In this document: positions 31,689 through 34,015 of the stretch, piece after piece | Position numbering within the stretch: the first letter of the stretch is position 1 | Layout: each line of letters starts with the position of its first letter | Source: a virus | Direction: 5' to 3' (one strand) | IMG/VR virus record: IMGVR_UViG_3300005347_000005 | Coordinates: 1-38,230 of that record | DNA: 38,230 nt | Made by a program: the position numbers and the translations under genes | The notes under the pieces: model-generated | Databases searched by the model: none | Told to the model about the DNA's origin: nothing | The model's input: only the letters and a program-made list of their open reading frames with translations

Positions 31689-31858
31689 CCCTGCCTCCAC
31701 TCGGCACAAGTCCGATGACCATTGAAAGGCATGTGCTCGGACGTGACTGTTGGTTTGGACGCCAGCGGGGTTGCCGTCCCACCTTTGGGGAGGGTGTTAC
31801 CCCTCCCCTCCGGCCCGGTGCCGTCCGTGGCGGGGGGCGCCTTCGACACCGAAGTCAT
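31685..31858 (-). CDS. Small Pro/Thr/Gly-rich protein between Cro-like gene and 95-residue gene
   Basis: This 57-residue ORF starts with an ATG overlapping the Cro-like stop (ATGA) and ends in a TGA overlapping the next ATG (ATGA). It is Pro/Thr/Gly-rich and probably disordered, with one Cys near the end. A perfect eight-base GC stem lies in its DNA at 31787-31794 and 31801-31808. The two exact overlaps are strong evidence for coding despite the small size. Function unknown. Confidence 0.6.
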   Translation of the reverse strand: MTSVSKAPPATDGTGPEGRGNTLPKGGTATPLASKPTVTSEHMPFNGHRTCAEWRQG

Positions 31859-32058
31859 GCTGCTTCTCGTCGGCGCGGTTTTACGCCAGCCACGAGTTCC
31901 GCGAGCGTAGCCATCTTAGCCTCCACAATGTCGGCCCAATGCTCGGAGGGAATGCTGTTGCGCTGTCCCCAGGAGCGCACGGTGTGGATCGAGACGCCAC
32001 GGAGGGTGGCAAGCTGATCACAATCCGCGGCGGCGATAATGTCGGTATGGCTTCGCAT
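31855..32058 (-). CDS. Cro-like HTH regulator
   Basis: The 67-residue protein has a helix-turn-helix near its start, QLATLRGVSIHTVRSWGQRN (about residues 14-33), like YdaS/Cro-type proteins. It diverges from the CI-like gene and heads the left operon. The ATG at 32058 lies six bases after a CATTAT -10 box, so the mRNA may be leaderless; the earlier in-frame ATG at 32109 would lie upstream of the promoter. It should compete with CI for the shared operator sites. Confidence 0.72.
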   Translation of the reverse strand: MRSHTDIIAAADCDQLATLRGVSIHTVRSWGQRNSIPSEHWADIVEAKMATLAELVAGVKPRRREAA

Positions 32059-32064
32059 CCCCCT

Positions 32065-32093
32065 ATAATGCATTTTGCACCACGGGTTGGCAA
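32065..32093 (-). promoter_or_regulatory. Left early promoter, possibly leaderless
   Basis: On the minus strand TTGCCA (32093-32088), a 17-base spacer and CATTAT (32070-32065) form a good sigma-70-like promoter. The Cro-like ATG starts six bases beyond the -10 box. An operator-like TGCATTTTGCA overlaps the -10 region and spacer, so repressor binding should block it. Confidence 0.55.
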
Positions 32094-32130: not shown

Positions 32131-32598
32131 ATGACTCAGGCATCGGATCGGTTACGAGAGGCGCGCGAAAAAGCCGGATACTCATCTGCCAAGGCAGCAG
32201 CAGAGGCGATGGGCATTCCCGTTGCGACCTATATACAGCATGAAAATGGTGGCCGTGGCTATCCGGCGAGCCGCGCCGATCGCTATGCGAAATTCTTTCG
32301 GGTGCAGGCTTGCTGGCTTCTATACGGCCAGGGTGAGGCGCCATCGGAGCAAGCGCGCCCGCCTAGTGCTGAACAGCTCCAGCAAATGATCGAGGCCGCC
32401 GTTCGGGATGTGCCCGCAGGTGCTTCCATCGGGGACTGGCCACGATACGTTGCTCCAGTGCTGCTTGACCAGCTAGAGCAATATCAAGCCGCTGGCGGAC
32501 TGAAGGGCAGTTCGGGCGGAGGGAACGTTCCCGACAAGCCTGTTCCACCTCCCCAGCCCACCAAGCGAGCCGGGAAGGTAGGATCGCGCACTCCATGA
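32131..32598 (+). CDS. CI-like repressor lacking a visible S24 domain
   Basis: The 155-residue protein has an N-terminal XRE-type helix-turn-helix (SDRLREAREKAGYSSAKAAA and then YIQHENGGRGYP) followed by YAKFFRVQACWLLYGQGE, as in CI repressors. The C-terminal part is helical, then Gly/Pro-rich; the Ser/Lys protease domain found in lambda CI is not seen. It diverges from the Cro-like gene with two operator-like sites between them. Without self-cleavage, induction would need another signal. No clear ribosome-binding site precedes the ATG. Confidence 0.8.
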   Translation: MTQASDRLREAREKAGYSSAKAAAEAMGIPVATYIQHENGGRGYPASRADRYAKFFRVQACWLLYGQGEAPSEQARPPSAEQLQQMIEAAVRDVPAGASIGDWPRYVAPVLLDQLEQYQAAGGLKGSSGGGNVPDKPVPPPQPTKRAGKVGSRTP

Positions 32599-32786: not shown

Positions 32787-32979
32787 TAAAATCGAGTCGA
32801 ACCAACGACTTAACAAGGTCTTGATTCGCAAGCATAAATCTGAGATTCTGCGGGCGGCGGGATACGCCGGAACACTCTCTCAGCCTGCCTCCACGTAGGT
32901 AGGTTAACCAGCCCGACGGCCGCCCTTGTGGTGGCGACCTATAAGCCGGCTGGCGCAACGGAGACCGGGGCCCGCCAAC
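32787..32979. other. Non-coding stretch between CI-like and DUF3800 genes
   Basis: I see no convincing gene here. The stretch has locally AT-richer DNA at 32787-32850, a GGTTAACC palindrome near 32903, and short inverted copies of GGTAGGTT at about 32897 and 32977 that could form a weak long-range stem. It lies where two genes converge, so a terminator or a phage attachment site would be expected, but no clear signature of either was found. Confidence 0.35.
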
Positions 32980-33810
32980 CTACCATTTGAAGCCGTAGAA
33001 CCTAAATATCGGCCAAGATGCCGTAGGAATTGCGCCGTGATGCCTAAATGGCAGGGCGACAAGTCCCGCATCCGCCACGCATCCGCGCCGCTCCCCCATG
33101 ATAGGCGCGAGGGCTTGCGCCGGCCTGATATCATGCACCGGGGATTTTGTGTTGACCGCCTGCGCGAATGCGCTCGCGACTGTGTCCGCCAACTGGAGCC
33201 CAGCCAGTTCTTCCACAGGGCGCACCGACCAGTCTGATCGATCAAGCAAGACCGGGTTGAGGCCCTTTCCTTTTAGGTGCATCGTTCCAGTCTCGGCCTG
33301 CATCTTCAGCTTATCGATATATGCGAAGAAGTGATCGTAATCGTGGCCACCTCGCTCGGCCATGACGAGACTCAATGGTTGCAACTTGCCGGCTTCGCTG
33401 ATCTGCCATTCCTCGGCCCACTCGGTGACGCGTTCAAGTAGCATCCGAGTTGCCCAATTGTAGAATTTATCGCTGGCTACCTTAGAGCGCAGGCGGGGAT
33501 TAATGTACTCTCGCATATTGGATTTGTGCGAGGCCACCACAAATGCACGGACTGGTTTGGTCGCGAGTTCCGCGCACACGCCAGGTTTCCGTTCCTGAGT
33601 AATTCGGTGATAGTGCAACGCACCCGACTGCCAGGAGTTGGCGCGCGTGCGAAGATCCCTCACCCAATTTACTAAGTTGTCAGACCGGCTCGTCCGAACA
33701 GCAACCGCCGCAACGCAAAGCCATTCATAGCGATCATCGTAGAACTTTATACCGTCCTTAGTGCCAGGATCACCGGCCTCGTCGATGAATATTGTAAGAC
33801 CAGTCTGCAT
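32980..33810 (-). CDS. DUF3800-family protein, probable accessory gene of the prophage
   Basis: The 276-residue protein opens with LTIFIDEAGDPG, the acidic N-terminal motif of DUF3800, and has LAGLQLADTVASAFAQAV near residue 205, also typical. DUF3800 proteins have an RNase H-like fold by prediction and occur next to mobile elements and in defence regions; the activity is not settled. It lies alone on the minus strand between the repressor and the right operon, the usual place of lysogenic conversion or exclusion genes. A TACAAT box ends six bases before the ATG, so the mRNA may be leaderless. Confidence 0.75.
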   Translation of the reverse strand: MQTGLTIFIDEAGDPGTKDGIKFYDDRYEWLCVAAVAVRTSRSDNLVNWVRDLRTRANSWQSGALHYHRITQERKPGVCAELATKPVRAFVVASHKSNMREYINPRLRSKVASDKFYNWATRMLLERVTEWAEEWQISEAGKLQPLSLVMAERGGHDYDHFFAYIDKLKMQAETGTMHLKGKGLNPVLLDRSDWSVRPVEELAGLQLADTVASAFAQAVNTKSPVHDIRPAQALAPIMGERRGCVADAGLVALPFRHHGAIPTASWPIFRFYGFKW

Positions 33811-33816
33811 CGGGTC

Positions 33817-33822
33817 ATTGTA
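33817..33822 (-). promoter_or_regulatory. -10 box of the DUF3800 gene, possibly leaderless
   Basis: TACAAT on the minus strand lies exactly six bases before the ATG, with no ribosome-binding site between them. The -35 region is poor. A near-palindrome around ATCGAT overlaps the upstream side and might be a regulator site. The spacing equals that at the Cro-like gene. Confidence 0.45.
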
Positions 33823-33928
33823 TCGATAATCTCATACCGGAGTCGAATCGATCTTATGCCCATCACCCAGCTCAGCCTTGCCGTAGTCGGCGGTGATTCG
33901 CGCCGACCTTAGCCGCACCGCACACCGC

Positions 33929-34015
33929 AGCATTTTGCATCAATTTCCACCGCGATCGTAAAAATATTTCGCATATGATGCATTTTGCACTTGCATAGGT
34001 TTGATGCATAATGCA
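33929..34015. promoter_or_regulatory. Three operator-like sites before the right operon
   Basis: Sites of the TGCA-N3-TGCA type lie at 33929-33939 (AGCATTTTGCA), 33979-33989 (TGCATTTTGCA) and 34005-34015 (TGCATAATGCA). An additional TGCA-CT-TGCA lies at 33987-33996. The middle and right sites overlap the -35 and -10 boxes of the right promoter. The same motif stands twice between the CI-like and Cro-like genes, so one repressor probably controls both operons. Confidence 0.65.
33985..34012 (+). promoter_or_regulatory. Right early promoter
   Basis: TTGCAC (33985-33990), a 16-base spacer and CATAAT (34007-34012) form a sigma-70-like promoter reading into the plus-strand operon. Transcription would begin near 34019, just before a hairpin. 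Both boxes lie inside operator-like sites. Confidence 0.55.

What the first reader, a model, noticed from the sequence alone, without database searches (positions are those of the whole stretch)
32980..33810. DUF3800 gene in the lysogeny region: candidate defence or exclusion gene
A solitary minus-strand gene with its own promoter-like box is placed beside the repressor, where phages often carry genes active in lysogens. DUF3800 proteins have no agreed function but have an RNase H-like predicted fold and recur near mobile elements. Nearby operator-like sites may tie it to the switch.
Basis: partly seen in the sequence, partly recalled or inferred. Interest (0 to 1): 0.65.

Follow-up and report, generated by a model that had tools for sequence, protein, structure and literature searches.

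The report
Prophage nuclease-fold gene paired with RNA
Beside its repressor gene, this temperate phage carries a gene for an RNase H-fold protein that sits tail to tail with a previously unrecognised structured RNA gene; similar protein-plus-RNA pairs recur at varying places in other phages, plasmids and bacterial chromosomes and look like a compact RNA-controlled exclusion or toxin-antitoxin-like device of untested function.

Summary
The gene is real: 276 codons, minus strand, 33810-32980, above Pfam's DUF3800 cut-off, with an own promoter-like box. It is not solitary. Directly behind its stop codon, on the opposite strand (32854-32979, +), lies a structured RNA gene. In 26 homologues it shows strong covariation (94% of cells paired against about 40% in slid controls) and a promoter-like box at its 5' end in most loci. 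Rfam does not detect it in the window. A model built without the window's sequence finds exactly this one site in 38 kb (E 3e-4). In relatives the same element is Rfam DUF3800-VII.

The protein belongs to a supported clade of DUF3800 in which the strand-4 Asp/Glu (27 of 27 in other DUF3800) is Ser/Ala (34 of 35). Its predicted fold is closest to type-2 RNases H. The pair lies in a slot between repressor and early operators that holds different genes in related phages. About 13 of 30 phage homologues also sit beside repressors.

Best reading: a lysogen-expressed RNA-protein cassette, most likely an RNA-restrained nuclease used for exclusion. Two-component architecture shown; mechanism inferred. 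New variant of a known, functionally unexplained kind.

The parts
32980..33810 (-). DUF3800-family protein, 276 aa, RNase H type-2-like predicted fold; variant clade with Ala/Ser instead of the strand-4 Asp (A151), invariant D10 E11 D14 H66 K96 R122 E126 R127 D209
   Evidence: ORF; Pfam; alignment; clade; model pLDDT 88.8; Foldseek
32854..32979 (+). Structured RNA gene related to Rfam DUF3800-VII, convergent with the DUF3800 gene and abutting its stop codon; closing stem 32856-32861 / 32971-32976
   Evidence: 3'-flank conservation; leave-one-out covariance model R2, E=2.9e-4, only hit in the window; covariation; not reached by Rfam's own model in the window
32810..32849 (+). Weak promoter-like boxes for the RNA: TTGATT (32821)-17-GATTCT (ends 32849), or TTAACA (32810)-17-CATAAA (ends 32838)
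   Evidence: weak in the window, p 0.10; strong across 33 loci, p=1e-7; second box read from the sequence
33817..33846 (-). Promoter-like box of the DUF3800 gene, TCGACT-18-TACAAT, -10 ends 6 nt before the ATG
32134..32598 (+). HTH_3 phage repressor without an S24 peptidase domain; left boundary of the cargo slot
   Evidence: Pfam; close relatives L010 and L096 have HTH + S24
31855..32061 (-). Cro/CI-type HTH gene, divergent from the repressor
   Evidence: Pfam (Phage_CI_repr)
32069..32079 (.). Operator-like site TGCATTTTGCA overlapping the cro-side promoter-like box
33979..34015 (.). Operator cluster TGCATTTTGCACTTGCA...TGCATAATGCA over the early (+) promoter-like box 33984-34012; right boundary of the slot, conserved in L095, L097, L099 and, with variants, L010 and L096

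Best explanation
A two-part mobile cassette, a DUF3800 protein gene plus a convergent structured RNA gene, has been placed as cargo in the lysogeny slot of an alphaproteobacterial temperate phage. Both parts probably remain on in the lysogen because no repressor operator overlaps the gene's own promoter box. The protein is an RNase H type-2-like nuclease with a rearranged acidic site. The RNA, made from its own promoter and folded on a closing stem, binds the protein and controls it in trans. Most likely the RNA holds the nuclease in check, as in RNA-antitoxin systems, and infection or host shut-off by another phage frees it, giving exclusion or abortive infection. Shown: the two-component architecture, RNA structure and strand, protein clade, predicted fold, slot variability, and co-occurrence. 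Inferred: expression in lysogens, RNA-protein binding, nuclease activity, inhibition rather than activation by the RNA, and the antiphage role.
For: RNA: DNA homology between DUF3800 loci in different contexts starts at the gene start but runs about 75-155 bp past the stop codon in more than ten pairs. Rfam DUF3800-VII matches 10 of these loci. 21 pairs, 94.1% of cells paired against 37-49% when slid, 93 double-change cells against at most 22. G-U 50 against A-C 6 cells fixes the strand opposite to the gene. The leave-one-out model finds the window site. One RNA per record in 21 of 23 records; no RNA of this type at the other, canonical DUF3800 loci searched. Promoter-like box with -10 ending 2-9 nt before the stem in most of 33 loci, mean score 9.1 against 5.3 shuffled, p=1e-7. 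Trans action rather than antisense: in L159 and L162 the RNA is on the same strand as the protein gene. Antitoxin-like behaviour: RNA stays intact where the protein gene is broken or split (L004, L161, L162), and one phage record has the RNA with promoter and terminator but no DUF3800 (L183). Protein. Slot and repressor adjacency. Precedent: prophage AbiF with RNA antitoxin RCd22 (PMC12373285).
Against: No experiment shows toxicity, RNA binding or phage resistance. The strand-4 Asp typical of DUF3800 is missing, so catalysis could be lost. Some intact homologues (L140/L142, L158, L169) have no detectable RNA, which a strict toxin-antitoxin pair would not tolerate. The window RNA's own promoter box and U-tract are weak, and its minimum free energy is not below shuffles. 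RNA outliving the gene is also what chance decay gives, and L183 is a single case. DUF3800 has no model in PADLOC.
Confidence: 0.45

Rival explanations
1. The RNA is a cofactor or scaffold that activates the nuclease: a constitutive ribonucleoprotein that attacks incoming phage or plasmid nucleic acid, with no toxin-antitoxin logic.
For: Strict one-to-one pairing of RNA and protein; RNase H type-2-like fold; DUF3800 proteins occur with Cas12a2 and in VI-F loci (PMC10910872, PMC12669027).
Against: Intact homologues without RNA; the RNA persists where the protein gene is broken; an orphan RNA exists.
Confidence: 0.25
2. RNA-guided nuclease of the TnpB/IscB (OMEGA) type: the RNA carries a guide that directs DNA cutting or homing.
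For: RNase H-family fold with a conserved RNA at the 3' end of the gene; scattered, context-independent placement.
Against: RNA is convergent, starts at the closing stem and in many loci ends in a U-tract, so no variable guide segment is evident; not strand-fixed relative to the gene (L159, L162); no close TnpB/IscB match in the fold search.
Confidence: 0.08
3. The RNA only regulates the protein gene in cis, as an antisense or transcription-collision element at its 3' end; the protein is an ordinary accessory nuclease.
For: Convergent arrangement; the RNA's closing stem overlaps the stop codon in several loci.
Against: A conserved fold with compensatory changes is not needed for antisense action; in L159 and L162 the RNA is on the same strand; an RNA exists without the gene.
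Confidence: 0.1
4. A selfish cassette (moron) with no benefit to lysogen or phage, spread by illegitimate recombination; slot position reflects tolerated insertion.
For: Cassette found in tail regions, plasmid and chromosome gaps; conservation stops at cassette edges.
Against: Long-term purifying selection on both components: 14 invariant residues at 20-39% identity to the window protein, RNA covariation; repeated presence beside repressors.
Confidence: 0.12

Closest known systems
Rfam RF02967 DUF3800-VII RNA (family in Rfam; function not known)
   Same: Same position behind a DUF3800 gene, same closing stem and core hairpin; matches 10 homologous loci above gathering score
   Different: The window RNA is below Rfam's reach and has a longer insert with an extra hairpin, as in L133, L134, L175
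PF12686 DUF3800 proteins
   Same: Scores above cut-off; DE motif and LQxAD helix conserved
   Different: Strand-4 Asp/Glu replaced by Ser/Ala; invariant D14, H66, K96, R122, E126, R127, Y164; separate clade
Type-2 RNases H (RNase HII/HIII/H2A)
   Same: The top 18 of the PDB fold matches are all type-2 RNase H, the best with probability 1.00; DEAG start resembles the DEAGRG motif (motif from general knowledge)
   Different: TM-scores only 0.36-0.42; GRG becomes GDxG; third acidic residue absent
Phage-encoded AbiF with RNA antitoxin RCd22 in C. difficile (PMC12373285); type III toxin-antitoxin
   Same: Prophage-borne protein with a dedicated highly structured RNA
   Different: Different protein fold; their RNA precedes the gene and has repeats; here one unit, convergent, behind the gene; neutralisation not tested
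TPR-DUF3800 proteins of Cas12a2 and type VI-F CRISPR loci (PMC10910872, PMC12669027)
   Same: DUF3800 domain with RNase H fold and catalytic rearrangement, RNA-related context
   Different: No CRISPR array, Cas gene or TPR part noted here; own dedicated RNA instead

Membership tests
PF12686 DUF3800 | Score above Pfam gathering cut-off | tested here: met
   34.2 bits against 21
PF12686 DUF3800 | N-terminal hDE[SA]G and C-terminal LQxAD helix | tested here: met
   D10 and D209 in all 62 aligned sequences, E11 in 58 of 62
PF12686 DUF3800 | Acidic residue at end of strand 4 | tested here: not met
   A151 in the window; Ser/Ala in 34 of 35 of the clade against Asp/Glu in 27 of 27 others; hence a variant clade
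RF02967 DUF3800-VII RNA | Score above Rfam gathering cut-off | tested here: not met
   No match at E up to 5 and up to 10
RF02967 DUF3800-VII RNA | Same covarying secondary structure | tested here: met
   Leave-one-out model built mainly from DUF3800-VII-type RNAs: 27.8 bits, E 2.9e-4, at the expected place; 17 of 21 pairs formed in the window
Type-2 RNase H | Fold | tested here: met
   Foldseek on the predicted model, E 1e-4, probability 1.00, though TM-scores about 0.4
Type-2 RNase H | DEAGRG motif and the further catalytic Asp on the later strand | tested here: not met
   DEAGDPG and A151
Type III toxin-antitoxin | Tandem-repeat antitoxin RNA upstream of and co-transcribed with the toxin gene | tested here: not met
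   Single-unit RNA, convergent, downstream
Type III toxin-antitoxin | RNA neutralises a toxic nuclease | not testable with these tools
   Needs expression experiments
OMEGA (TnpB/IscB) | RuvC-type nuclease with a same-strand or upstream RNA carrying a variable guide | tested here: not met
   No TnpB/IscB fold match among the top hits; RNA convergent and starts at its stem
Known antiphage systems (PADLOC) | Match to a PADLOC model | tested here: not met
   No match at E up to 1

The most novel reading that the evidence does not exclude
DUF3800 plus DUF3800-VII RNA is an undescribed class of RNA-controlled immune cassette in which a single-unit, independently transcribed, convergent RNA restrains an RNase H-fold nuclease, and orphan copies of the RNA on phages such as the L183 record serve as counter-defence antitoxins.
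Probability: 0.3. Interest if true: 0.85.

Novelty: new variant of a known kind. Interest (0 to 1): 0.62.

Why it matters
DUF3800 proteins and their RNAs have been listed in databases for years without a function. This locus gives a minimal, phage-borne, two-part version with defined ends, a confidently placed RNA strand, promoter-like boxes, candidate catalytic residues (D10, E11, D14, E126, D209) and a setting that points to a role in lysogens. That makes the question of what DUF3800 RNAs do directly testable, and it bears on how RNA-associated defence systems arise.

Tried and rejected
Close relatives of the window protein in genome and viral collections by single-sequence search: none; an alignment was needed. 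PADLOC, PHROGs and NCBIfam gave nothing for the window protein. PDB sequence search: nothing credible. Thermodynamic stability of the window RNA: no better than shuffles on either strand, so the case rests on comparison, not on folding energy. A divergent small gene next to DUF3800 in L140/L142/L143/L160 was considered as a partner but is absent in the window and most loci. Integron attC site: considered for the 3' palindrome and dropped, because the ends do not look like attC (judged by eye) and G-U against A-C counts show an RNA-level constraint. Type III toxin-antitoxin and OMEGA membership: features not met. RF02967 in 385 alphaproteobacterial genomes finds only one copy, beside a DUF3800. 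Repressor adjacency rests partly on inspection; with an unbiased profile alone about 10 of 30 loci have an HTH gene within 1.6 kb, 13 after Pfam checks, against a rough expectation of 10-15%.

Full report
Observation. The window is a 38.2-kb virus record of IMG/VR, with no host genome held. Its terminase is closest to phages of Roseibium and Agrobacterium, so the host is probably an alphaproteobacterium (inference).

Setting. A Cro/CI-type gene (31855-32061, -) and an HTH_3 repressor (32134-32598, +) diverge across an operator-like site TGCATTTTGCA at 32069. A second operator cluster, 33979-34015, covers the promoter-like box of the early plus-strand genes, which include ERF- and YqaJ-like proteins (gene names by inspection). 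The DUF3800 gene lies between repressor and second cluster, pointing toward the repressor. The closest syntenic relative, L010, has 60% Cro, 69% repressor N-terminus and 66% ERF identity, but no DUF3800: its repressor has an S24 domain and the second operator follows almost at once. Other relatives with the same operators carry other genes there: a GDSL-like protein (L095), a HIRAN protein (L099), and proteins without a Pfam match (L094, L098). The slot is therefore a cargo site of the immunity region. The DUF3800 promoter-like box (33846-33817) is not overlapped by an operator; its -10 ends 6 nt before the ATG. Expression in the lysogen is an inference from this.

Protein family. Alignment searches found 32 viral loci and 5 strong chromosomal homologues among 385 genomes of one class, against 65 genomes with any DUF3800. 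The 35 aligned members form one clade (SH-aLRT 99), the window with L133 (97). Fourteen positions are invariant: D10 E11 G13 D14 G16 H66 K96 R122 E126 R127 Y164 A208 D209 G249. At the end of strand 4, other DUF3800 have Asp or Glu (27 of 27), this clade Ser or Ala (34 of 35). AlphaFold2 gives pLDDT 88.8, pTM 0.90; the first 18 PDB matches are all type-2 RNases H, best E 1e-4, TM about 0.4.

Genomic company. In L133, the nearest homologue, the gene is again convergent with an S24-less repressor that is similar to the window's over its full length (E 4e-11). In L002 and L138 it directly follows an S24 repressor; in L134, L137, L148, L150, L151, L153, L161 and L163 a repressor-type gene lies within 1.6 kb. 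Others sit beside tail genes or in chromosomal gaps. About 13 of 30 loci is more than a rough 10-15% expectation, with the caveat that detection was partly by eye.

The RNA. Comparing loci in different contexts, DNA homology begins at the start codon but runs about 75-155 bp beyond the stop codon. That stretch holds a conserved element. Rfam calls it DUF3800-VII in 10 loci, on the strand opposite to the gene except in L159. In the window Rfam sees nothing, yet the sequence aligns. With 26 sequences, 21 pairs give 94.1% paired cells, 16 pairs with double changes and 93 such cells, against 37-49% and at most 22 cells when the partners are slid. G-U cells number 50 and A-C cells 6, which places the RNA on the strand opposite to the gene, plus in the window. 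A model built without the window (R2) has one hit in the whole window, 32854-32979 (+), E 2.9e-4, ending at the DUF3800 stop codon. The model R1 finds the element once per record in 21 of 23 homologous records and at none of the canonical DUF3800 loci searched; four of those carry a different Rfam RNA, DUF3800-VI. Upstream of the RNA, promoter-like boxes score 9.1 on average against 5.3 in shuffles (p=1e-7), the -10 usually ending 2-9 nt before the stem; U-tracts follow the stem in many loci. In the window both are weak. Note that the window's folding energy is unremarkable.

Mechanism. A conserved fold, an own promoter, orientation that can flip (L159, L162) and survival without the gene (L183: intact RNA with promoter-like box and U-tract, no DUF3800 in the 34-kb record) argue that the RNA acts in trans. 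Loci with broken or split protein genes but intact RNA (L004, L161, L162) fit an RNA that restrains a harmful protein, as RCd22 does for prophage AbiF (PMC12373285), but decay by chance gives the same picture, and intact proteins without RNA exist. I therefore favour RNA restraint over RNA activation, without excluding the latter; a guide RNA is unlikely. An antiphage or exclusion role follows from the slot, the repressor neighbours and the presence of DUF3800 in CRISPR loci (PMC10910872, PMC12669027), and is untested.

Comparison and novelty. The association of DUF3800 genes with RNAs is known (Rfam; PMC10910872), their function is not, as far as the searched papers show. New here: a divergent RNA beyond Rfam's reach, its strand and likely promoter, the variant active-site clade tied to it, the lysogeny slot, and an orphan RNA. 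Verdict: new variant of a known kind.

Noticed in passing
L183:1032-1121 (+): Orphan DUF3800-VII-type RNA with promoter-like box and U-tract in a phage record (34 kb) without any DUF3800 match; possible counter-defence RNA or a relic.
   Followed up: partly
window 32134-32598; L094, L095, L133: Repressors of this phage group come with or without an S24 peptidase domain on similar HTH domains; how the S24-less ones are induced is unclear.
   Followed up: partly
L010, L094-L099 between repressor and second operator cluster: Variable cargo slot with proteins without Pfam match, a GDSL-like protein and a HIRAN protein; could be mined for lysogeny genes.
   Followed up: partly
L140:4856-5020, L142:5805-5966, L143:5776-5985, L160:5733-5972: A small conserved gene (53-79 aa, '..KKFxxAARELxxD..') lies divergent to DUF3800 in one sub-branch; two of these loci (L140/L142) lack the RNA.
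   Followed up: no
L106, L108, L109, L126: Canonical DUF3800 genes of another branch carry a different RNA, Rfam DUF3800-VI, in front of the gene.
   Followed up: no
L159, L162: DUF3800-VII-type RNA lies on the same strand as the DUF3800 gene, the reverse of all other loci seen.
   Followed up: partly
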